DNA of 26,248 nucleotides from a virus (IMGVR_UViG_3300035698_014493:1-26248), one strand, 5' to 3'. Shown: positions 4,616-23,178, counted from the stretch's first letter. Made by a program: numbers and translations. The notes: generated from the sequence alone by a model not told the origin.

Positions 4616-5221
4616 ATGAGCGACAAAGAATTAAAGAAAGCAATAGACAACATCCAACCAGGTAGCTGCTTTGGGCATTACGATAAGATAGCAAGAGAGT
4701 GTAAGACATGCTTTGTTGTGGAACAGTGCAGTAAAAATACAGCGAGCAGAGAGCTTGCTGATTCTTCAGATGAGGAAGAAAAACCTGAAGTCAAGAAAAA
4801 GAGTCCTTCAGTTAAGAGGAAGTATACGAAGAAGAAAGAAGAGCCTAAGGCCGAAGTCAAAGAAGTTCCAAAAGTTGAAGTCAAAGAAGTTCCAAAAGTT
4901 GAAGTCAAAGAAGTTCCAAAAGTTGAGATTAAAGAAGTTCAAAAAGTTGAAATTAAAGAAGTTCCAAACGTTACAGGAAACTCATTCTTTGATGCGGCCT
5001 TATTGGAATTAGAATCAAAGATTAACTTAAATGAGCAAAAAGATTCAGCAAAGCTAGCGCTTTATTTCTTTGGCAGGAGCAATATGATTGTCGCTTATTC
5101 AAAGGCATCTGGAAATGTGCAGTTGTCAAAGAGTGGAGAGAAGACGAATTATAAGCCATTCGAGAACAAAGAAGATGCAGCAGTTTTGAAAAAAGATATG
5201 CTCGTTGATTATGAAGACTAG
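4616..5221 (+). CDS. Cys-motif protein with VEVKEVPK repeat linker
   Basis: Unknown function. Three parts are visible in 201 residues: an N-terminal module with CFGHYD, then C-x2-C and C five residues on (C18, C29, C32, C38 approximately), which could bind zinc; a charged linker with basic KRKYTKKK and five tandem copies of an 8-residue unit like VEVKEVPK; and a C-terminal ~80-residue domain beginning near NSFFDAALLELE. The same CFGxxxP/DxxxxxCxxCxxxxxC pattern returns as a 41-aa stand-alone protein at 10057-10182. The start has TGAGGA about 8 bases upstream. It overlaps the helicase gene that follows by 11 bases, so co-translation is likely. Confidence 0.75.
   Translation: MSDKELKKAIDNIQPGSCFGHYDKIARECKTCFVVEQCSKNTASRELADSSDEEEKPEVKKKSPSVKRKYTKKKEEPKAEVKEVPKVEVKEVPKVEVKEVPKVEIKEVQKVEIKEVPNVTGNSFFDAALLELESKINLNEQKDSAKLALYFFGRSNMIVAYSKASGNVQLSKSGEKTNYKPFENKEDAAVLKKDMLVDYED
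4853..4972 (+). repeat. Five 24-bp in-frame tandem repeats
   Basis: Five consecutive 24-base units (4853, 4877, 4901, 4925, 4949). The first three are identical at the DNA level; the last two carry point changes. Each encodes eight residues of the type E-V-K-E-V-P-K-V. The identity of three units points to recent expansion by slippage or recombination. The unit length is a multiple of three, so copy changes would keep the frame. Confidence 0.95.
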
Positions 5222-6143
5222 TGAGTATAAGCACTATAAACTTCCATTTGAATCATTCAACAAAGCGCAAGAAGCAGTAGTTCCATTCTTAGATAAGGAT
5301 ATAAACTTAGTAATAGCTTTTAACACGGCAGTGGGCAAAACAGCCCTTGCCGAGTGTGCGTTTGGGTATCATTTAAATAGGAATAAAAAGTCTAAAGTAA
5401 TTTACACATCTCCTTATAAAAGTATCTCTGAAGAGAAATATGCCTCTTGGCATCAAGATCCTCAGTTTGGCAAGAAGTTTAAATTCAAACTAGACACTAG
5501 TGATTATTCTTCTAAATTGGAAGACTTTGAGAAAAGTAGAATAATGATAATGACAACTGAATCCTTAGATGCTAAGACTAGAAGTAAATCTCATTGGGAC
5601 TGGCTTAAGGACGTAGAATGCATCGTAGTGGACGAAGCCCATATGCTTGGCATAGAAAGGCGTGGGAGCAAGTTGGAGGCCCTCATGATGCGCTTGACTC
5701 AAATCAATCCATCGATAAGAGTTATATTGTTGTCTGCCACGATGACTAATTCATTGGAAATGGCAAAATGGATTAAGCATTTAAACGGAAAAGCGACAAA
5801 GCATATTAAGAGTAGCTGGCGACCATGCGTGATGGAAGTTAGTTATCATGCTTTTGACTATTGTGACGGCTATGGACGTGAAGAAAAAAAGATAAATATG
5901 GTTTTAGAGTTGATTAAAGATTATCAAGGAGAAAAGCTAGTTGTATTTGTCCACTCCAAAGTAACTGGAAACAGCATAATAAAAAGTATAGTTGCTTCTA
6001 AGCTTCCAATAAGGTGCGCTTTCCACAACAGCTCTCTCTCTAAAGCAAAAAAGAAAGAAATAGAGAAGAAGTTCAAAGATCCAAATTCTGGATTAGACGT
6101 TCTTGTAAGCACATCTACTCTTTCCGCTGGTGTTAATTTATAG
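5211..6143 (+). CDS. Ski2/Hel308-like helicase, N-terminal piece (motifs I-V)
   Basis: First piece of a superfamily 2 helicase, ending in a TAG stop inside the second RecA domain. Motif I is NTAVGKT (residues 38-44), motif II is DEAH (141-144), motif III SAT (175-177), and the protein stops right after motif V (STSTLSAGVNL, 300-310), where relatives continue with PAxxVII. Motif VI and everything beyond are in the next reading frame, which starts 15 bases later. The pair would help remodel forks or recombination intermediates. The ATG at 5211 is chosen over a TTG at 5205; the ribosome binding site is weak and the gene overlaps the previous one by 11 bases, so translational coupling is likely. 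A split gene, a frameshift product or a sequence error are discussed in the findings. Confidence 0.8.
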   Translation: MKTSEYKHYKLPFESFNKAQEAVVPFLDKDINLVIAFNTAVGKTALAECAFGYHLNRNKKSKVIYTSPYKSISEEKYASWHQDPQFGKKFKFKLDTSDYSSKLEDFEKSRIMIMTTESLDAKTRSKSHWDWLKDVECIVVDEAHMLGIERRGSKLEALMMRLTQINPSIRVILLSATMTNSLEMAKWIKHLNGKATKHIKSSWRPCVMEVSYHAFDYCDGYGREEKKINMVLELIKDYQGEKLVVFVHSKVTGNSIIKSIVASKLPIRCAFHNSSLSKAKKKEIEKKFKDPNSGLDVLVSTSTLSAGVNL

Positions 6144-6157
6144 ATCAAGGTAATAAA

Positions 6158-7159
6158 GTGCAGAATAGAATTATAATTACAGACATCATGCGAGCCGGAA
6201 AGGAAGTTCCTGTCTCAGAACTTAAGCAGATGATAGGAAGAGGAGGTAGGAATCAGAATGAAGAAGTTGCATATGCTGATGTAGTATTGGAGAATGACAG
6301 CATTGAGTATATAAAGGAGAAGATTGATTCAGATAGAGATCTTCTGGTTAATTCTCAGATAAATACAATAGATGAGCTTTCATTTCACATAGTTGCAGAC
6401 ATTGAAAACGGATTCATTCGTAGCATTGATGACATAGAGAAATGGTATTCAAGAAGCTTTAGCTCATTTCAGGGGAATCCGCTCAACTTAAAGCATTTGC
6501 TTAATTTTTTAGTAGGAATAAATGCTATAAGGTTGAATGGGAATAAAGTCTGCAATACTAACTTGGGTAGAATAGCAGCAAAGTTTTATTTCACACCTAA
6601 TGTGGTATATACTTGGAAGAAGAACTTCACTCTTCTATTTGATCAAGGAATGCAGTATGATGATATTGCAACTGTGTGGTCGTTGGCTGATGTCCCTCTT
6701 CAGAAGTCATGGTATAATGTAAAAAATGACCTAGGAATAATATCAGACTTTAAGTCAAGCGTAGAGGCTGGAGGGTTTGAGTGGGAACATTCTAACAATG
6801 TAAGCGCTTTCCCATATTGGACTCTGATTGGAGGCCCTAGAGTAAGGGCGGCAGGCGGAATAATGGGGGATATAAAAAAGAACTATGGCAGAACTCATCA
6901 AGCACTTATGCATTTGGATAAGCATTGTGCAAAGTGGGGAATGGCGGAGTATTTCGAAGAATTGGAGTTGAGAGTTAGGTATCAAGTAAGAGCTGATTTG
7001 GTAGATTTGTGTAAAATTGATGGAATTGGAAAAAACCTAGCAGAATGGCTGTATAATATGGACATACGTGACATTGATGATATTAAAGAGAATGCTGATA
7101 GTATTATTATAATGAGCGATTATGAACTAAAGGAATTAATAGAGAAATTGATTAAATGA
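6158..7159 (+). CDS. Ski2/Hel308-like helicase, C-terminal piece (motif VI to HhH)
   Basis: Second piece of the helicase, in a frame shifted by -1 relative to the first. Its first residues (QNRIIITD) correspond to the strand after motif V, followed by motif VI QMIGRGGR at 24-31 with the arginine finger. Then comes a winged-helix-like part with TNLGRIAAKFYFTP, a helical ratchet-like region, and near the C-terminus a helix-hairpin-helix-like segment (CKIDGIGKNLAEWLY) typical of Hel308. The GTG start at 6158 has AAGG at 6147-6150, seven bases upstream, which supports independent initiation. An alternative is fusion to the upstream piece by frameshifting near 6138-6142, since this frame is open from 6137 onward. 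Confidence 0.75.
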   Translation: MQNRIIITDIMRAGKEVPVSELKQMIGRGGRNQNEEVAYADVVLENDSIEYIKEKIDSDRDLLVNSQINTIDELSFHIVADIENGFIRSIDDIEKWYSRSFSSFQGNPLNLKHLLNFLVGINAIRLNGNKVCNTNLGRIAAKFYFTPNVVYTWKKNFTLLFDQGMQYDDIATVWSLADVPLQKSWYNVKNDLGIISDFKSSVEAGGFEWEHSNNVSAFPYWTLIGGPRVRAAGGIMGDIKKNYGRTHQALMHLDKHCAKWGMAEYFEELELRVRYQVRADLVDLCKIDGIGKNLAEWLYNMDIRDIDDIKENADSIIIMSDYELKELIEKLIK

Positions 7160-15219: not shown

Positions 15220-16281
15220 ATGAAGTATGGATATGATTTTAAAACCAAGAATACATTTGGTTTTGATGGAGAAAAGTTTAATTACTTAGGAAAGAAGGAT
15301 TATAAAGACATTGGAATAGACAAAATCTATGATGGATCTGTGTTCTTTAATAGTGATTCCAAGGAAGTTGAGTGTGTAAATAGTAATTATGCATATATAC
15401 TAGGTGCGTATTATTTATCTGGAGCAACTCAGAAAAGAGCTATTGTAATATTGTCTGATGGAATAGATACAGTTTCTTTTATAGTTGTTGATGGGGTTAA
15501 AGGTCTAAACATAATTCCATATGACCTAAAGGACTACAATGAGAAAGATTTCAATGAAGCAATAGTTGTTTGTGGGAATGTTTGCAATATTCCCAGTCAA
15601 GTAGCTGATATCGCAAATGAATTTAAATTCAATCCAATATATTTTTGTCCAATAGTAGATGAGCTGTCATCGTTTGGGGCTTTGTTCGTTGGTATGCGTA
15701 AAAAAGCTTACATGCCTCCAAAGAGGGTTCAGTTTTGGGAAAGAAATACCAAAGAGATAGAGAATGTTCCTGAATTCATGGAATTTGATGAAAGTTTGCA
15801 GGATTATAATGAACCTTACGGGAAATTAGCCTATGCTGTGTGCAAGGGAGGGCAGAAATCATTGAATCAAATAAAGAATGGGATTGGAATATCTCCTTTC
15901 TATGATAAAGTGATAAGCACTGAGATTTTAAGCGATGATCCTGTTTTTATTGTTAACTATGATCACATGGAAGAATATTTCCCTAGTGAGTATATATCGA
16001 CAAGAGGATTCGCAGCTACATCTGTCCCAGTGACGCTAGGAAATACTGATAAGTTTAAAAAAGACAGCAAGTGTGATAAAGATAGGATAAATATATTTGC
16101 TGTTGTCACTGATTACAGTGATGCTATGGTGTTCTTTAACTTTGGCCATGCTATGTCTGGAACAAAGATTGTTTCTTCATATGAGCAAAGTTCATTGAAT
16201 TTGGAAAAGATAAATTTAGTATATAGATATAATAAATCATACAGAGTTACTGAGGAGAGATATAAAGATGGAATTAATTGA
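15220..16281 (+). CDS. Unknown 353-aa protein
   Basis: Not recognised. The product alternates beta-like stretches (RAIVILSDGIDTVSFIVVDG) with loops and has no transmembrane segment, signal peptide or clear catalytic motif. It starts five bases after the nuclease gene and overlaps the polymerase start by 14 bases, so it is made with replication proteins. In T4-like order this place would hold the gp46 ATPase, but there is no Walker motif or coiled coil here. Confidence 0.65.
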   Translation: MKYGYDFKTKNTFGFDGEKFNYLGKKDYKDIGIDKIYDGSVFFNSDSKEVECVNSNYAYILGAYYLSGATQKRAIVILSDGIDTVSFIVVDGVKGLNIIPYDLKDYNEKDFNEAIVVCGNVCNIPSQVADIANEFKFNPIYFCPIVDELSSFGALFVGMRKKAYMPPKRVQFWERNTKEIENVPEFMEFDESLQDYNEPYGKLAYAVCKGGQKSLNQIKNGIGISPFYDKVISTEILSDDPVFIVNYDHMEEYFPSEYISTRGFAATSVPVTLGNTDKFKKDSKCDKDRINIFAVVTDYSDAMVFFNFGHAMSGTKIVSSYEQSSLNLEKINLVYRYNKSYRVTEERYKDGIN

Positions 16282-19210
16282 GTTATACAAGCAGTATTCA
16301 ACACCAGAAGATGAACAAATAATATTCCCTAAAGACATATTGTTTATAGTACCAAGTAGAGACTTTGATGTTGGGCAGTATTTAGAAGAATTTAATATAT
16401 CCAAGTACGAGATATGCAAGACATGGCCTAAAAAAGGTTTGTCGATGCCAAAAGAAGTTAAGGCATTGTCTCCAAGGATAACTATTCAACTTGAAAAGAA
16501 GTTTACGGATAAGCTTCCTTTCGTTTCTGGGTATAATTCCATTGATGAAAAACTTAAGAAGAGAGTTCTAAGATCGGCAACTGATGCTTTTGTTAATTTC
16601 CATCATCACACTGACTTTAGCATTCGTGATGGGCTTGGGACTGTAGAACAGCTCAGTGAACTGTTAATAGAGCAAAGGAGATCGTATTGCTGTGTTACTG
16701 ACCATGGAAGTATAGGAGGATGGATTAAGCAGTACACAACTTGTAAGAAGAGCAACATAAAGCCAATATTCGGATGCTTGAGCCCAGGTCAGCCAATAAT
16801 TACAAAGGATGGTATAAAGAAGATAGAAGATATAAAAGTTGGAGACTTAGTATTAACTCACAAGGGGAGATTTAAAAAAGTATTAAGCACTTTCAATAGG
16901 GAGTATGAAGGCGACTTACACAATATAGACTGCTGGGGGTCGAAATCATGCTGGGTAACTTCTGAGCACCCAATATTATGTTATTCATCAGATGATAAGT
17001 TTGAGTTTAATGGGAAGAGAAAGAAACGAGTTTGGGATTATAAGTTTGACTGGATTAAGGCTGGAGACCTTAATCCTAAGAAAATAAATGCTTGGTCAAA
17101 TCCAGAGGGAGAAGTTGTAAATGGAAGATGGACGCACTATGCAGTTAAGCCTTTGATTAAGGAAAAAATAAGTTCGAAGTTAGATATTCTAGAATTTATA
17201 GATAAAGAAATATTCAATGAGTGTGAAGATGGAATCGTAAGAAAGAAAGTAAAAACAAAATCACATAAGTCATATTCATATGGATTAAGTAGATTTATTG
17301 AATTGGATGAAGACTGGATGAGGTTCCTTGGGCTGTATGTTGCGGAAGGAAGTACTAATCATGGAAGTATGAGATGGACATTAAACAATTTCATAGATTC
17401 TAATGCGATAGACTTTTTAAGAAAATTTTGTAAGGATAAGTTGAATTTAGAGTTGAAATTTGCTGGATATACTGAGCGTGAGGATGGATTTAGTAAGGCT
17501 TCTGATTACTATGTGTGCAGTATTGTGTTGCAAAACTTTATAGATAACTTATTGGGGAAGGGTTGTGCCAATAAAAGATTTCCTTCTGAATGGTTATGTT
17601 TGGATAAAAATTTATTAAAATCATTAGTGGATGGAATTTTTGAAGGAGATGCAAATAAGTCTTCAGATGTATTAAAAACTACTTCATGGGAGTTGGCAAA
17701 TTTAGTGGATTATGCAGTTACGTTAGTTGTAGGAAGATCATATTCTACAACTATTACGAAAGCAGAAGGAAAGAAAACGGCTTATGACGTGCCTAAAAGG
17801 CATTATGATGACAATAAATCAAGATATACTAAATCAGATGATGATTATTGTTATTTGCCAATAAGGGAAAAGAAAACAAAGAATTATAAAGGAATGGTCT
17901 ATAATTTCGAAGTAGAAGAGGATAATAGTTATATATCTGGAATAGCTCTTCACAATTGCGAACTTTACATTGGACATTACAGAGGCGATGACCCAGAGTT
18001 AAAGAAGGCAAACAGAAGCGCAAATCATTTGACAACTTTTGCCAATACTCAAGAAGGATTTTACAATCTAATAAAAATACACAACGATGCTCAGTTGAAT
18101 GGCTTCTACTATTCTCCAAGGGCTGATAAGCAATACATAAAAGAGAATGCAAAAGGAATTATTGGACTGTCTGGATGTCTAATGGGGGAAGTATCTAAGG
18201 CATTGAATGCAGACGATGTAGACAAGGCAGAAGAGATCTATAATTTTTACAAAGATTGCTTTGATGACTTCTACATAGAACTGCCAATGATTGAATTTAA
18301 AATGCAAGTTGATACAAATAAAAAGCTTGTTAAATTCGCTAGGTACGTTGACGCTCCTATGGTTGTAAGCTGCGATTCTCACTACACAAGGCCTGAACAT
18401 GCAGAGACTCATGACTTGTTGATGCTTATTAGAGATGGAAAGACTGTTGAGGATAAAATTGCAACTCCAGAAGAAGTTTGGCAGTTTGATGTTAGAAACC
18501 TTTATTACAAGAATGCCGAAGAGATGAGAGAACTCCATGAAGATGGGTTCATAACTCAGTCGGGAGAACATCATCACTACAAAGATGAATTTTTCACAAA
18601 AGAAGTTTTTGAAGAAGCTCTTACAAATAGTCATAAGCTAGCCGTATCAGTTGAAGACATTGAGCTAGACTCTGATATAAAACTACCTAAGCTATTTGGA
18701 GATAGTGCGGATATTCTTAAGAATAAAGTTAGATCTGGCATGACTGACAAGGAAATAAACAAAAAGGGTAATTACAAGGAATATATAAAGAGAGCTAAGT
18801 TTGAGCTTAAGATAATAGATGAGCTTGGATGGAATGACTATTTCTTAGTTATGGATAAGATCGTTCAGGATACAATAGAGAAGCATGGAGAGTGGTCTAT
18901 TGGGTATGGGAGAGGCTGTTTTGTTCCAAACTCAAAAGTGCTAATGAATAATGATGAATTTAAAGAGATCAAAGATGTTGAAATTGGAGAGGAAGTTTAT
19001 TCTCATGATGGTTCTGTAAATAAAGTTATAGATAAGTATAAGTATGAAATAGAGGAAGATATCATTGAGATAGAAATGGACAATGGTAAAAAAATAGTTT
19101 GTACTGTTGATCATAAAATCTTAGTAGCAAGAAATGGAAAGGAAGAATGGGTAGAAGCTCAGTTTTTGAAGGAAAGCGATGAGCTAGTGGAAGTAAATGA
19201 GCAGACTTAA
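16268..19210 (+). CDS. dnaE: DNA polymerase III alpha subunit, N-terminal piece with two inteins
   Basis: First half of the replicative polymerase. Residues 1-105 are an unusual N-terminal extension. The PHP domain starts at H112-H-H-T-D116 and includes CCVTDHGS and later VVSCDSHY, so metal ligands look kept. At residue 170 it is interrupted by an intein (170-563) that splits IKPIFG from CELYIGH. The polymerase continues (564-883) to WSIGYGRG, then a second intein N-half runs from C884 to the stop at residue 980. On its own it cannot polymerise DNA, as the catalytic aspartates are in the second piece at 20152-22368. GAGGAG precedes the ATG. The next gene starts 14 bases before its stop. Confidence 0.95.
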   Translation: MELIELYKQYSTPEDEQIIFPKDILFIVPSRDFDVGQYLEEFNISKYEICKTWPKKGLSMPKEVKALSPRITIQLEKKFTDKLPFVSGYNSIDEKLKKRVLRSATDAFVNFHHHTDFSIRDGLGTVEQLSELLIEQRRSYCCVTDHGSIGGWIKQYTTCKKSNIKPIFGCLSPGQPIITKDGIKKIEDIKVGDLVLTHKGRFKKVLSTFNREYEGDLHNIDCWGSKSCWVTSEHPILCYSSDDKFEFNGKRKKRVWDYKFDWIKAGDLNPKKINAWSNPEGEVVNGRWTHYAVKPLIKEKISSKLDILEFIDKEIFNECEDGIVRKKVKTKSHKSYSYGLSRFIELDEDWMRFLGLYVAEGSTNHGSMRWTLNNFIDSNAIDFLRKFCKDKLNLELKFAGYTEREDGFSKASDYYVCSIVLQNFIDNLLGKGCANKRFPSEWLCLDKNLLKSLVDGIFEGDANKSSDVLKTTSWELANLVDYAVTLVVGRSYSTTITKAEGKKTAYDVPKRHYDDNKSRYTKSDDDYCYLPIREKKTKNYKGMVYNFEVEEDNSYISGIALHNCELYIGHYRGDDPELKKANRSANHLTTFANTQEGFYNLIKIHNDAQLNGFYYSPRADKQYIKENAKGIIGLSGCLMGEVSKALNADDVDKAEEIYNFYKDCFDDFYIELPMIEFKMQVDTNKKLVKFARYVDAPMVVSCDSHYTRPEHAETHDLLMLIRDGKTVEDKIATPEEVWQFDVRNLYYKNAEEMRELHEDGFITQSGEHHHYKDEFFTKEVFEEALTNSHKLAVSVEDIELDSDIKLPKLFGDSADILKNKVRSGMTDKEINKKGNYKEYIKRAKFELKIIDELGWNDYFLVMDKIVQDTIEKHGEWSIGYGRGCFVPNSKVLMNNDEFKEIKDVEIGEEVYSHDGSVNKVIDKYKYEIEEDIIEIEMDNGKKIVCTVDHKILVARNGKEEWVEAQFLKESDELVEVNEQT
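16775..17956 (+). mobile_element. Intein 1: 394-aa cis-splicing intein with LAGLIDADG endonuclease
   Basis: Starts at C170 (CLSPGQPIITKDG, block A), has the block B T-x-x-H (T231, H234), two LAGLIDADG-type motifs LGLYVAEGS (354-362) and LVDGIFEGDA (453-462), and ends in YNFEVEEDNSYISG (block F) and ALHN (block G) before extein C564. Removing it restores IKPIFG-CELYIGH, the expected PHP-domain sequence of DnaE. All splicing residues appear intact, and both endonuclease motifs keep an acidic residue, so splicing and homing activity are both plausible. Confidence 0.93.
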
Positions 19211-20259
19211 AGATAAAAATGAATGGCCTGTATGGTTACATCCATTCTTAGTCGAAAAAGAAACTGAAAGAAGGAAGAATCAATACGATCCATCAATGAC
19301 AAGAATGATTTACTACAGTATAGGATCTGTTCCAATTGAACTGATGCTGAGTAACAATATGTCAAGATCATTAAAGTGGGAAGTTTATGGGAAGTGCATG
19401 AACTGCGATAAAGATTTTGATTGCATGTGGAATAATTTATTTATAAGGAAAAGGAATAAGGGATTGGAAATTTGTGGAAGATGTACAAGAAAAGAAAGCT
19501 ATAATGAAGAGTGGAAAAGAAATAATTCAGCCGCTCAAAAAAGAGCTCAAGGGACTCCAGAGGCCAGAGCGAGAATGTCTAACTTGTTGAAAGAGGTATA
19601 TAGGAAAGATCCAACAATGAGGAAGAGGATTTCAAATTCTTTGAAAGAAACTTATAAAGGCAATGATGAGCTGAGGAAGAAGATATCGGATGCTTCCAAG
19701 GCAAATTGGAGAAATCCATCGTATGAGGAAAAAGTAACTGGCAATGGATATTATTCTGGCTATTTCTTAAACGATAGCAAAAAGATATTCTATGCCAGCT
19801 CTTGGGAACTTATGTTTTTGATGTGGTGCGATGAAAACGATGAAATTGTAAGCTTCGACAGATGTGAGGATGTTGTTAACTACACTAAGCCAGATGGTAG
19901 TGAATCTGGGTATCATCCAGATTTTAAAGTTTTTTATAAAAATAAAAAAAATACAGTTTATGAGATAAAAGGAAGAATTAGAGATATAGGAGTATATAAT
20001 GAAAAAAAATCAGCAGCAGAAAAGTATTATCTAGATAGTTTTGATTATGTCGTATTAAAGAAGAATGATTTAAAGGAAATAGGCATCAATCTGGATAAAA
20101 AAGATTTAAAGGAATGGATTGACGCATTGCAAAAAAATGGAGTTATAGAGCATGCCAAAAGTAAAAAGAATAAATAAGAAGAAGTACATTGGAATCGTTT
20201 ATGATTTGTGTATTGAGAATACGCATACGTATAACATTGAAGGATTGGCAGTTCATAAT
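18917..20259 (+). mobile_element. Intein 2: split intein with embedded homing endonuclease gene
   Basis: N-half: 97 residues from C884 (CFVPNSKVLMNNDEF), with block B T946-V-D-H949, ending at the stop at 19208-19210. C-half: 36 residues at the start of the second polymerase gene (20152-20259), with block F YDLCIENTHTYNIEG and block G LAVHN, followed by extein serine. Between them is a free-standing endonuclease ORF. Ligation would restore GRG-SAAGSLVSY, the conserved polymerase motif. The 97 + 36 split near the usual endonuclease site is like the gp41-1 class of split inteins from phage metagenomes. Confidence 0.92.
19197..20177 (+). CDS. Free-standing Vsr-like (EDxHD) homing endonuclease
   Basis: A 326-aa endonuclease predicted to spread the split intein by cutting intein-free alleles. 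N-terminal part: a four-cysteine knuckle (C67-x2-C70 and C93-x2-C96). Middle: three repeats of a helical DNA-binding unit (RMSNLLKEVYRKDP, RISNSLKETYKGND, KISDASKANWRNP), like NUMOD3-type units. C-terminal nuclease: SSWE (E204), YHPDF (H240, D242) and YEIKG (E256, K258), the pattern of the Vsr-related family that includes I-Bth0305I. The ATG overlaps the end of the polymerase N-piece by 14 bases and its stop overlaps the start of the C-piece by 26 bases. The 3' part is very AT-rich. Confidence 0.85.
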   Translation: MSRLKDKNEWPVWLHPFLVEKETERRKNQYDPSMTRMIYYSIGSVPIELMLSNNMSRSLKWEVYGKCMNCDKDFDCMWNNLFIRKRNKGLEICGRCTRKESYNEEWKRNNSAAQKRAQGTPEARARMSNLLKEVYRKDPTMRKRISNSLKETYKGNDELRKKISDASKANWRNPSYEEKVTGNGYYSGYFLNDSKKIFYASSWELMFLMWCDENDEIVSFDRCEDVVNYTKPDGSESGYHPDFKVFYKNKKNTVYEIKGRIRDIGVYNEKKSAAEKYYLDSFDYVVLKKNDLKEIGINLDKKDLKEWIDALQKNGVIEHAKSKKNK

Positions 20260-22368
20260 TCAGCCGCAGGATCATTGGTTTCTTATTGCCTTGGCCTTAC
20301 GGATGTTGATCCGCTCCCTCATGGATTGCTCTTTGAGAGATTCTTGGATTATTCACGATCAGACCCTCCTGACATAGATACAGACTTTGATCCTAGGATA
20401 AGGGATGAAGTGAAAGAAGACATTGTGAAAGAGTTCGGAGAAGAGAAAACATGCTCAATTGGAACTTATATGCTCTATAAAACAAGAGCTGTTATTCTCG
20501 ATGTAGCACGTGCGTTGGCGTTAGATGTTTCTGAGGCGAATATGGTTACAAAGAAAATGGACCCACTGTCAAAGATATCTGTTGAAAATGAACTGGGAGA
20601 AGCTGACACTAAGACTATTGACAACATGACATTTGATGAGTTGTCAAATGAGTTTGAAGAGTTGAAAGTGTATTTTGAAAGGTATCCTGAAGTTAGAACG
20701 CATGCGGAAGTTATAAGAAATCAAGTTAAGAACATGTCAACGCATGCAGGGGGAATGATTATCTCTGATCTTAATTTGCAAGGAAAGATTCCTGTGTTTA
20801 GGGATTCAAAATCAGGCAGAGTTGTGTCTGCATGGGCTGAGGGAATGGCAACTCATGAATTGAGTCGTGTTGGATTGGTTAAATTTGATTTGTTGAGTCT
20901 TAAGAATTTATCTATAATTTCAGATTGTATAAATTTCATAGAAGAGAATAAAGGCAAGAAAATAAACAGAGATGATATTCCTATTAATGACAGAGAGGCC
21001 ATAAAATATGGATCAAAGAATGATCTAGTAGGGATATTCCAGTTTGAGAGTCCTGAGACCAAGCCAATAGCAGATGCAGTAGTAATGGAGAGTATTAACG
21101 ACATAGCTGCTGTGACATCATTGATTAGACCAGGCCCTAAGAATATGGGAATGCATATGGAGTATGCTGAGAGGAAGCATGGAGCTGATTTTGAAATGCT
21201 ACCAGGTTGTGAAGACATACTTGGCCCAACGTATGGAGTAATGGTTTATCAAGAGCAAATGATGCTTTTGTCTCAGAAACTAGCAGGATTTTCAAAAGGA
21301 GAGGCAAATAAGCTTCGTAAAGCATGTGGACGGAAGATTCCAGAATTAGTTGCTGAAATGAGATTGAAATTTAACAAAGGGTGTGAGGAAGTTGGCCTTA
21401 TTAATGGCGAGAAGTCGGAGAAAGTATTTGATTTGATAGAATCATTCGCTGCATATGCTTTTAATAAATCGCATGCAATAACTTATGGGGCTATAACATC
21501 AGTTGAGCTGTGGCTTAAGTATTATTATCCTATTGAATACATTGCCTCTTTGCTTAATAACACTCCTCCTGCCAAAAAGACAAGAACTTCCAATGCTGTT
21601 GTGGAATATATAAACTACGCAAGGAGAAGGGGCTTTAAAGTGTTGCCTCCATGTGTGAATAAAAGTGGCGAGAAATTCAGAATTGAAAAAGGAGCTATTC
21701 GATTTGCATTAGGGCATATTAAAATGGTGGGAAATTCTTCTGACATTATAGAAGCAACAAGAGATAATGATGTGCTGGATGAAGAAGGGAACATAATTGA
21801 ACACAAGGGAGATTATACAAGTGTTGAGGACTTCTTTAATCGTGTTAACAAGCGCAAAGTTAACAAAAGAGTAATGGACAGTCTTATATCATCGGGAGCG
21901 TTTGCTTGTTTTGGAACAAAGCAAGAAGTAATGGAGCAATACTTTAAGCTAAGAAAGAACAAGAAGGATGTTGTAGAGGATAAATCTGAGCAAAAATGGG
22001 ATGATCTGGAAAGAGAGGCTCTTAATATGGTTTTAAGTAAGCCACCTTTGTTGGATGATTACGAGGAGACAATAGCTGAGAAGAAATGGTGTAGGATTGG
22101 GGATTTGATTTACAGGAAGAAAGCATATGCATTTGGCAGAGTAGTTGACATAAAGCATAAAGTTTCAAAGGCTGGAAATCAGATGTACTTAGTAGATTTA
22201 ACAGATGACATTGACACAGTTACATTCTTTGTTTTTGCAAAAGCAATGACTCAATTTGTTAAAGAGTGCAAAAAGGGTTATATTGTTGCAGTACCACTAG
22301 GAAAGTTTGATGATGGGGATGCAAGATTTTATGATAACTTTAAGAATTGTATTATTATAAAGAGGTAG
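20152..22368 (+). CDS. dnaE: DNA polymerase III alpha subunit, C-terminal piece with split-intein C-half
   Basis: Residues 1-36 are the intein C-half ending in HN; the extein begins at S37 (SAAGSLVSYCLGL). The catalytic acidic cluster PDIDTDFD is at 73-80 and the third aspartate lies in GLVKFDLLSLKNLS. Fingers follow, with YQEQMM and GEANKLRKACGRK and FNKSHAITYG, typical of DnaE. Near the end are the helix-hairpin-helix region and an OB fold (GRVVDIKHKVSKAGNQ). The protein ends right after the OB fold, so the C-terminal tau-binding domain of bacterial DnaE is missing. The start ATG has GGAG nine bases upstream, inside the endonuclease gene. After trans-splicing the whole polymerase is about 1191 residues. 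Confidence 0.95.
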   Translation: MPKVKRINKKKYIGIVYDLCIENTHTYNIEGLAVHNSAAGSLVSYCLGLTDVDPLPHGLLFERFLDYSRSDPPDIDTDFDPRIRDEVKEDIVKEFGEEKTCSIGTYMLYKTRAVILDVARALALDVSEANMVTKKMDPLSKISVENELGEADTKTIDNMTFDELSNEFEELKVYFERYPEVRTHAEVIRNQVKNMSTHAGGMIISDLNLQGKIPVFRDSKSGRVVSAWAEGMATHELSRVGLVKFDLLSLKNLSIISDCINFIEENKGKKINRDDIPINDREAIKYGSKNDLVGIFQFESPETKPIADAVVMESINDIAAVTSLIRPGPKNMGMHMEYAERKHGADFEMLPGCEDILGPTYGVMVYQEQMMLLSQKLAGFSKGEANKLRKACGRKIPELVAEMRLKFNKGCEEVGLINGEKSEKVFDLIESFAAYAFNKSHAITYGAITSVELWLKYYYPIEYIASLLNNTPPAKKTRTSNAVVEYINYARRRGFKVLPPCVNKSGEKFRIEKGAIRFALGHIKMVGNSSDIIEATRDNDVLDEEGNIIEHKGDYTSVEDFFNRVNKRKVNKRVMDSLISSGAFACFGTKQEVMEQYFKLRKNKKDVVEDKSEQKWDDLEREALNMVLSKPPLLDDYEETIAEKKWCRIGDLIYRKKAYAFGRVVDIKHKVSKAGNQMYLVDLTDDIDTVTFFVFAKAMTQFVKECKKGYIVAVPLGKFDDGDARFYDNFKNCIIIKR

Positions 22369-22686: not shown

Positions 22687-23178
22687 ATGAATTTAAATAA
22701 TTATATAAAAGAAGCAATAAAAACAGAAATTGTTATAGAAGAAGTAAAAGTAAATACAAGATTAAATCATGGGATAATGGGAGTTGTAACAGGAGTAGGA
22801 GAGCTGTTGTTACCGTTTGTAGATATTGAAAACAGTCCTTGGGCTCATGTTGTACGTATCAAAGAAGAAGTTGGGGGCATACTCTGGCATTTAGCAATAC
22901 TCATGGATGAGATGTCTTTGAACTATGATGATATAGATGAAATAGAAATGTCTGGGTCTAATTGCAATGATTGTGTTTTTAATTTAGTAGCAATGGCATC
23001 AAGTCTTCAGGATGACCTGATGAAACATATTTACAATGACAATAGTCTTGATTATGATTTAATAGAGGACATTGTTGCAATGATAGTTATAAACTTAAGA
23101 AGTATTTCTAAAGAACTTGATTTTACATTAGAGGACGTGGCTGAGGCCAACATCAACAAATTGAATACAAAACATTAG
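22687..23178 (+). CDS. MazG-like all-alpha NTP pyrophosphohydrolase, partly degenerate
   Basis: Members of this group hydrolyse NTPs or dNTPs to NMPs and are common in phages. The 163-aa protein has the fold's landmarks: RLNHGIMGVVTGVGELL (for GLAGEAGE), IKEEVGGILWHLAILM (for EELGDxLWYLA) and LEDVAEANINKL near the end. Two of the four acidic metal ligands are replaced: the first E is G36 and the D of EELGD is G64, while E39 and E60/E61 remain. Catalysis may be lost or altered. AAAGGG precedes the ATG. It could tune nucleotide pools or counter alarmone signalling if active. Confidence 0.7.
   Translation: MNLNNYIKEAIKTEIVIEEVKVNTRLNHGIMGVVTGVGELLLPFVDIENSPWAHVVRIKEEVGGILWHLAILMDEMSLNYDDIDEIEMSGSNCNDCVFNLVAMASSLQDDLMKHIYNDNSLDYDLIEDIVAMIVINLRSISKELDFTLEDVAEANINKLNTKH

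What the first reader, a model, noticed from the sequence alone, without database searches (positions are those of the whole stretch)
16268..22368. Fractured DNA polymerase III alpha gene needing both cis- and trans-protein splicing
Seen: polymerase pieces end in ...YGRG and resume at SAAGSLVSY, flanked by matching intein halves (97 + 36 residues), while the PHP domain in the first piece carries a separate complete intein. Known: split inteins in fractured phage-like genes have been described from metagenomes. Inference: an active polymerase arises only after two splicing events, one between two polypeptides. The combination of a cis intein and a trans intein in one viral polymerase, at two different conserved sites, looks unusual.
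Basis: partly seen in the sequence, partly recalled or inferred. Interest (0 to 1): 0.88.

Follow-up and report, generated by a model that had tools for sequence, protein, structure and literature searches.

The report
Phage DNA polymerase split by intein
A phage's main DNA-copying enzyme is encoded in two separate pieces with a DNA-cutting gene wedged between them, and it must almost certainly be stitched together by self-splicing protein tags; this is a clear new case of a known arrangement, with an unbroken sister gene and many broken relatives to compare.

Summary
The phage dnaE gene is in two ORFs (980 and 738 aa). A contiguous LAGLIDADG-type intein sits in the PHP domain, and a split intein (97 + 36 aa) sits at GYGRG|SAAGS. 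Removing the inteins in silico gives 1191 aa that align without a gap to an uninterrupted 1191-aa dnaE in a sister phage (91% aa identity). That sister gene is a natural empty-site allele. The layout is the 'fractured gene' arrangement that I recall from Dassa et al. 2009. The uniqueness claim fails: one relative carries one cis and two split inteins in dnaE, and Calothrix and Nostoc dnaE carry a cis intein at this same site plus the classical split intein. IMG/VR contains every state at this one site: empty, contiguous with LAGLIDADG, contiguous mini, split, split with nuclease, and nuclease fused to IntC. Among deduplicated groups, phages have 15 split and 8 contiguous; sampled bacteria have none split and 7 contiguous. 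Trans-splicing and homing are strongly inferred but not shown.

The parts
16268..19210 (+). dnaE-N: PHP domain and N-terminal part of DNA polymerase III alpha, carrying a cis intein inside and IntN at its end (980 aa)
   Evidence: ORF; Pfam PHP 3e-30, DNA_pol3_alpha 7e-7; phrog_405 DNA polymerase 1.2e-75
16775..17956 (+). cis intein in the PHP domain (394 aa), IFG|C...HN|C, with a LAGLIDADG-type middle (dodecapeptide-like FLGLYVAEGS and LVDGIFEGDAN)
   Evidence: absent without trace from the sister DnaE; Hint_2 and intein_Cterm matches; PRK14898 intein region match, 4.5e-12
18917..19207 (+). IntN, N-terminal half of the split intein (97 aa; Cys1, block B TVDH; net charge -13)
   Evidence: TIGR01445 intein_Nterm 5.6e-9 at 884-953; alignment A3; charge
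19197..20177 (+). free-standing nuclease, predicted homing endonuclease: CxxC...CxxC zinc ribbon, helical NUMOD-like linker, TnsA-like PD-(D/E)XK domain (326 aa)
   Evidence: invariant S201, E204, R222, Y229, Y239, P241-D242-F243 and K258 across 11 relatives; TnsA 1f1z Z 9.4; Tn7_TnsA-like_N in 8 of 11 members, best 2.9e-8; overlaps both neighbours
20152..22368 (+). dnaE-C: IntC plus catalytic palm, fingers, HHH and OB part of polymerase III alpha (738 aa)
   Evidence: ORF; Pfam DNA_pol3_alpha 2e-46, finger 3e-43; PDIDTDF and VKFD catalytic motifs lie in this piece
20152..20259 (+). IntC, C-terminal half of the split intein (36 aa, ends VHN, +1 Ser; net charge +3)
   Evidence: matches the end of PF14890; 58% identical to IntC of L032; alignment A3
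20260..22365 (+). C-extein of DnaE (702 aa)
   Evidence: 90.2% aa identity to the sister DnaE, no gap

Best explanation
This is a phage replicative polymerase gene (DnaE type) invaded twice by inteins. At the PHP site a contiguous intein with a LAGLIDADG-type endonuclease domain splices itself out of the N polypeptide. At the phosphate-loop motif GRG|SAAGS the intein is naturally split. IntN ends dnaE-N, IntC begins dnaE-C, and between them lies a separate gene for a zinc-ribbon, TnsA-like PD-(D/E)XK nuclease. The three ORFs overlap end to end and are probably translated in a coupled way. The acidic IntN and basic IntC bind each other and splice in trans (Cys1, block B His, terminal Asn, Ser+1), joining 489 + 702 residues into the 1191-aa polymerase. 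The nuclease most likely cuts intein-free dnaE at this site so that the split intein and nuclease are copied in together (homing). Shown: the gene layout, the residues, the intact sister allele and the recurrence of the same site and nuclease in other phages. Inferred: that splicing occurs, and that the nuclease homes.
For: (1) An intact sister allele: the spliced product is 1191 aa, gapless, 91.3% identical, dN/dS 0.035 over the exteins (dS saturated). (2) All class 1 intein residues are present in both halves: C1, TxxH, YDL..., HN|S. (3) The split falls at the same point (IntN ends ...DDxVEV, IntC starts MxKxK...) in most split relatives at this site. (4) Charge segregation: split IntN mean -9.6 against -0.3 in contiguous inteins, IntC +3.1 against -1.5; window -13 and +3. 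(5) A homologous nuclease (17-47% identity) lies between the halves, or fused to IntC, in ten other IMG/VR loci aligned here; L032's is 47% identical over nearly the full length. (6) Nuclease distances track intein distances (Mantel r 0.89) and extein distances (r 0.89) over 11 loci. (7) The nuclease domain models at pLDDT about 90 with TnsA as best fold, Z 9.4. (8) Synonymous divergence from the sister is raised within 20 codons of the GRG junction (0.61 against 0.41; top 1.2% of windows), as co-conversion from a divergent donor would give.
Against: There is no experiment, transcript or proteome. Charge and Mantel statistics treat related sequences as independent. The co-conversion hint comes from overlapping windows at one of two junctions and could be chance. 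No cleavage site has been tested, so homing is analogy. Four relatives at this site (L013, L019, L029, L035) are split with no nuclease ORF between the halves, so the nuclease is not needed for the split state.
Confidence: 0.9

Rival explanations
1. The two polymerase pieces work as a non-covalent two-subunit enzyme and the intein halves are dead leftovers.
For: Split proteins can reassemble without ligation. This phage and its sister keep a UvsW-like helicase as two ORFs with no intein between them.
Against: All splicing residues are intact in both halves, the acidic/basic pairing is kept and the split point is conserved across divergent phages. The break bisects the GRG|SAAGS loop of the polymerase core, an unlikely place for a tolerated break. 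A dead 97-aa tail would be expected to decay.
Confidence: 0.06
2. The break is a metagenome assembly error or a decaying pseudogene.
For: The window is one 26 kb IMG/VR record with no reads available here.
Against: The same site is split with a homologous nuclease in ten other aligned contigs, one with a 47% identical nuclease. ORFs are intact and overlap neatly, and the exteins are strongly conserved.
Confidence: 0.01
3. The split intein is a regulatory device: conditional trans-splicing times the appearance of active polymerase during infection, and the nuclease is a passenger.
For: Conditional splicing of cis inteins has been reported elsewhere (e.g. mycobacterial DnaB and zinc, PMC7360933, abstract only). 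Some relatives are split with no nuclease between the halves.
Against: The sister phage with 91% identical DnaE does without either intein, so no essential regulatory role. The patchy distribution with cis, split and empty alleles fits selfish mobility better.
Confidence: 0.1
4. The nuclease between the halves is not a homing enzyme but serves host DNA degradation, head completion or defence.
For: PHROGs 'head closure' (T4 gp4-like) is its best PHROG match, 8.9e-14. TnsA-like nucleases have other roles.
Against: Its position inside the intein gap at one site in many phages, its N-terminal zinc ribbon and helical linker (NUMOD3-annotated in a Moonbeam relative), and co-divergence with the intein all fit a homing enzyme.
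Confidence: 0.12

Closest known systems
'Fractured genes' (Dassa et al. 2009, NAR 37:2560; title seen in reference lists; content from memory, paper not held)
   Same: An essential phage DNA-replication gene is broken in two by a split intein with a free-standing endonuclease gene inserted between the halves.
   Different: Here the gene is DnaE at GRG|SAAGS, with an additional cis intein in the N piece. The nuclease's best fold match is TnsA rather than the Vsr-like family that I recall from that paper.
Cyanobacterial split DnaE intein (Ssp, Npu)
   Same: Split intein in a DnaE polymerase needing protein trans-splicing.
   Different: Different insertion site: FAEY|CFNK there, GRG|SAAGS here. 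There the halves are in distant genes with no nuclease between them (established knowledge).
Contiguous DnaE inteins at GRG|SAAGS: Lactococcus phages 949 and P1048, Bacillus phage G gp329, Nostoc, Calothrix, Sulfurovum, Persephonella
   Same: Same insertion site and homologous splicing domain.
   Different: Contiguous: about 375-456 aa forms that align to LAGLIDADG inteins, or about 245 aa in the phage G group; not split.
L032, IMGVR_UViG_3300035698_012402
   Same: Same split site, IntC 58% identical, nuclease 47% identical, cis intein in the PHP part.
   Different: The cis intein is at another PHP site. There is an extra MT-A70-like ORF between the halves. A second split intein at FNK|SHA with a LAGLIDADG ORF leaves dnaE in three pieces.
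gp41-1, NrdJ-1, Npu DnaE inteins of known structure
   Same: Homologous splicing fold found by profile in the PDB (8ubs, 6qaz, 2keq).
   Different: Different host genes and sites; sequence only distantly related.

Membership tests
Split intein (class 1) | Cys/Ser at position 1, block B TxxH, block F, C-terminal His-Asn, Cys/Ser/Thr at +1 | tested here: met
   C1, T63-x-D65-H66, YDL...Y120-N121, VHN|S; Pfam/NCBIfam matches
Split intein (class 1) | Two halves on separate polypeptides that together complete the fold | tested here: met
   IntN carries the N-terminal splicing region (TIGR01445), IntC covers 122-155 of 155 of PF14890; separate ORFs
Split intein (class 1) | Trans-splicing activity | not testable with these tools
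   needs expression
Fractured-gene arrangement | Conserved enzyme gene broken in two by a split intein | tested here: met
   intact homologue in L005
Fractured-gene arrangement | Free-standing endonuclease gene between the halves | tested here: met
   PD-(D/E)XK motif, TnsA fold Z 9.4; activity not tested
Fractured-gene arrangement | Vsr-like (I-Bth0305I, EDxHD) nuclease, which I recall in about half of the original loci | tested here: inconclusive
   I-Bth0305I 3r3p Z 6.5, 18% identity, among many PD-(D/E)XK folds; TnsA ranks higher at Z 9.4. Invariants read E...PDF...(E)xK
Cyanobacterial split DnaE intein | Insertion at FAEY|CFNK | tested here: not met
   here GYGRG|SAAGS; the FNKSHA region of the window and sister is uninterrupted
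LAGLIDADG contiguous intein (PHP site) | Splicing motifs at both ends plus two dodecapeptide motifs | tested here: met
   C...HN|C ends; FLGLYVAEGS and LVDGIFEGDAN; PRK14898 match 4.5e-12
Homing endonuclease | Cuts the intein-free allele at the insertion site | not testable with these tools
   intact target allele exists in L005; cleavage not tested

The most novel reading that the evidence does not exclude
One dnaE site (GRG|SAAGS) preserves every step in the birth, and perhaps the reversal, of split inteins. In phages a TnsA-like nuclease occupies the endonuclease slot of a mini-intein and fractures the gene. Some lineages lost the nuclease, one fused it to IntC (L012), one moved the halves 6 kb apart (L017), and two (L014, L025, which have acidic IntN and fall beside or within the split group) may have re-fused into a contiguous mini-intein. 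Sampled bacterial homologues at the site are all contiguous.
Probability: 0.4. Interest if true: 0.65.

Novelty: new member of a known kind. Interest (0 to 1): 0.52.

Why it matters
A replicative polymerase that cannot exist until two proteins are spliced together is a striking dependence. The sister phage with an intact gene and the range of alleles at the same site turn the question of how split inteins arise into something that can be tested directly. The split inteins found here are also candidates for protein-ligation tools.

Tried and rejected
L002-L004 (first tblastn hits covering from residue 4) proved to be intact bacterial dnaE genes in gut contigs, without inteins. The search for related loci with the nuclease alone found no relatives, and with a short IntC alignment it chose variable stretches and found only phage G; degenerate pattern scans for HN|SAAGSLV worked. 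phmmer of the nuclease against the PDB found only chance hits. The sister phage record has no detectable copy of either the nuclease or the cis intein elsewhere (these searches had no positive control). No Rfam match or tRNA in the window. L021, L045, L072 and L080 are chance pattern matches. I considered that the second break of L032 at FNK|SHA is the cyanobacterial site; it lies a few residues away and so is not the same. L067 in the second intein tree started at a wrong residue and should be ignored. The intein trees do not resolve where the window's intein joins the split group. Dassa 2009 and Taylor 2011 are not held.

Full report
What is there. The window is a 26,248-base IMG/VR virus record with a phage replication module: DnaB-like helicase, primase, UvsX-like recombinase, UvsW-like helicase, SbcD-like nuclease and DnaE polymerase. 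The dnaE gene is in two ORFs, 16268-19210 and 20152-22368. The first holds the PHP domain and ends GYGRG followed by a 97-residue intein N half. The second begins with a 36-residue intein C half ending VHN and continues SAAGSLVSY. A separate 394-residue contiguous intein interrupts the PHP domain (16775-17956), with LAGLIDADG-like motifs.

What was missed. The gap between the two pieces is filled by a 326-aa ORF, 19197-20177, overlapping dnaE-N by 14 nt and dnaE-C by 26 nt. Alignment with ten relatives shows an N-terminal CxxC...CxxC zinc ribbon and a C-terminal nuclease domain with invariant S201, E204, R222, Y229, Y239, P241-D242-F243 and K258 (E256 nearly invariant), a PD-(D/E)XK signature. 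Its AlphaFold model has pLDDT about 90 over residues 210-290, and the best solved match is TnsA (1f1z, Z 9.4, rmsd 2.8, 122 residues; I-Bth0305I Z 6.5). Pfam Tn7_TnsA-like_N matches 8 of 11 members.

Proof by an empty site. A related 202 kb phage contig, IMGVR_UViG_3300038300_000071, encodes DnaE as one uninterrupted 1191-aa ORF. Removing both inteins from the window in silico gives exactly 1191 aa, with no gap, 91.3% aa and 82.7% nt identity, and dN/dS 0.035 with saturated dS. Neither the nuclease nor the cis intein was found elsewhere in that record. Within 20 codons of the GRG junction the synonymous difference is 0.61 against 0.41 overall, in the top 1.2% of windows. This would fit co-conversion from a divergent donor, but the windows overlap and only one of two junctions shows it.

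The same site elsewhere. Pattern scans for HN-SAAG-x-L-V returned 37 contigs, 35 of them real dnaE genes. After grouping near-identical loci, phages have 15 split and 8 contiguous groups. The genome scan gave 7 contiguous groups in bacteria, none split and 2 unclear (Fisher p 0.006). The scans required S+1 and specific flanking residues, and the genome scan used only TCN serine codons, so this is a sample. Phage states: contiguous of 376-456 aa aligning to LAGLIDADG inteins (L016, L020, L041, L047, Lactococcus 949 and P1048); contiguous of 127-135 aa (L014, L025) or about 245 aa (phage G group); split with little or nothing between the halves (L013, L019, L029, L035); split with the nuclease between (window, L015, L023, L026, L032, L034, L038, L039, L042 and near copies); split with the halves 6.3 kb apart (L017, nuclease still next to IntC); and nuclease fused in frame to IntC (L012). 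For L027 the IntC piece is present but no partner was found in the contig.

Are the halves a working pair? Alignment of eight inteins at this site, seven split and one contiguous, keeps C1, F2, the TxDH block, G107, D111, Y120-N121 and V127-H128-N129. The split point is nearly the same in most relatives. IntN is acidic and IntC basic in the split forms (means -9.6 and +3.1) and not in contiguous forms at the same site (-0.3 and -1.5; Mann-Whitney p 7e-4 and 1.5e-4; relatedness not corrected; the contiguous set includes the two PHP-site inteins in the means; L017 is an exception). The profile finds NrdJ-1, Npu DnaE and gp41-1 in the PDB. Nuclease, intein and extein distances are mutually correlated over 11 loci (Mantel r 0.80-0.89), so nuclease and split intein have been associated for a long time.

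Evolution. Trees of the splicing domains separate the split inteins plus the two small contiguous ones (L014, L025) from most LAGLIDADG-bearing ones with moderate support. The window and L032 sit near the base and are unresolved. That L014 and L025 have acidic IntN halves and fall beside the split group hints at re-fusion, but one origin and its direction are not settled.

How it works, step by step. Shown: gene layout, residues, empty allele, recurrence. Inferred from established intein chemistry: the PHP intein excises in cis; IntN and IntC associate by charge and splice in trans, giving the 1191-aa polymerase. The break bisects GRGSAAGS, and the PDIDTDF and VKFD catalytic motifs are all on the C piece, so neither piece should be active alone. 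Inferred by analogy: the nuclease promotes homing into intein-free dnaE.

Against the literature. From memory, Dassa et al. 2009 described split inteins with an intervening free-standing endonuclease in phage-like DNA synthesis and repair genes; the paper is not held, so I could not check whether DnaE at this site was listed. A cis plus a trans intein in one DnaE has precedents in tool results here: Calothrix brevissima NIES-22 and Nostoc dnaE ORFs carry a contiguous intein at GRG|SAAGS and end in the FAEY|CLSYDT split intein half, and L032 has one cis and two split inteins. No held paper on a fractured phage dnaE was found.

Verdict. Real, well explained and a new member of a known kind, with an unusually good natural comparison set.

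Noticed in passing
window 5205-6143 and 6158-7159: A UvsW-like helicase is encoded as two ORFs broken between helicase motifs V and VI, with no intein or gene between them. The sister phage (L092, 85% aa identity in the first piece) has the same break, so it is probably natural gene fission, not a sequencing error.
   Followed up: partly
L032 2097-10329 on the reverse complement (IMGVR_UViG_3300035698_012402): dnaE in three pieces: cis intein at ACD|SHY, split intein at GRG|SAAGS with an MT-A70-like ORF and the nuclease between the halves, and a second split intein at FNK|SHA with a free-standing LAGLIDADG ORF between its halves.
   Followed up: partly
L015, L025, L027, L029, L035: dnaE also carries intein N halves at FNK|S near the end of the fingers domain, a few residues from the cyanobacterial split DnaE site. 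In L025, L027, L029 and L032 the partner half follows, with an endonuclease-like ORF between the halves in L027, L029 and L032.
   Followed up: partly
L012 11763-13040: The nuclease is fused in frame to IntC and the start of the C-extein in one polypeptide; splicing would cut the nuclease off together with IntC.
   Followed up: no
L017 324-9732: The split intein halves are 6.3 kb apart with unrelated genes between them, a possible intermediate towards the dispersed cyanobacterial arrangement.
   Followed up: no
L009 3317-6450 (Prevotella phage Lak-B5, TAG read as Gln): The recA-like gene is fractured in the same way: IntN, a nuclease-like ORF, IntC. By tblastn with the IntN half, nine Lak genomes match.
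   Followed up: partly
L052 2589-6696, L053 1830-4998: In these phages dnaE is broken again near residue 715-725 with no intein at the break; a DEDD exonuclease-like ORF (and an HNH-like ORF in L052) lies between the pieces.
   Followed up: no
window 22687-23178: A MazG-like ORF downstream of dnaE is absent from the corresponding place in the sister phage L005.
   Followed up: no
L008 3798-7770 (Bacillus phage G gp329-gp331): Phage G DnaE has a contiguous intein at GRG|SAAGS, and its ORF is then interrupted before a GIY-YIG-like ORF (gp330), probably by a group I intron.
   Followed up: no
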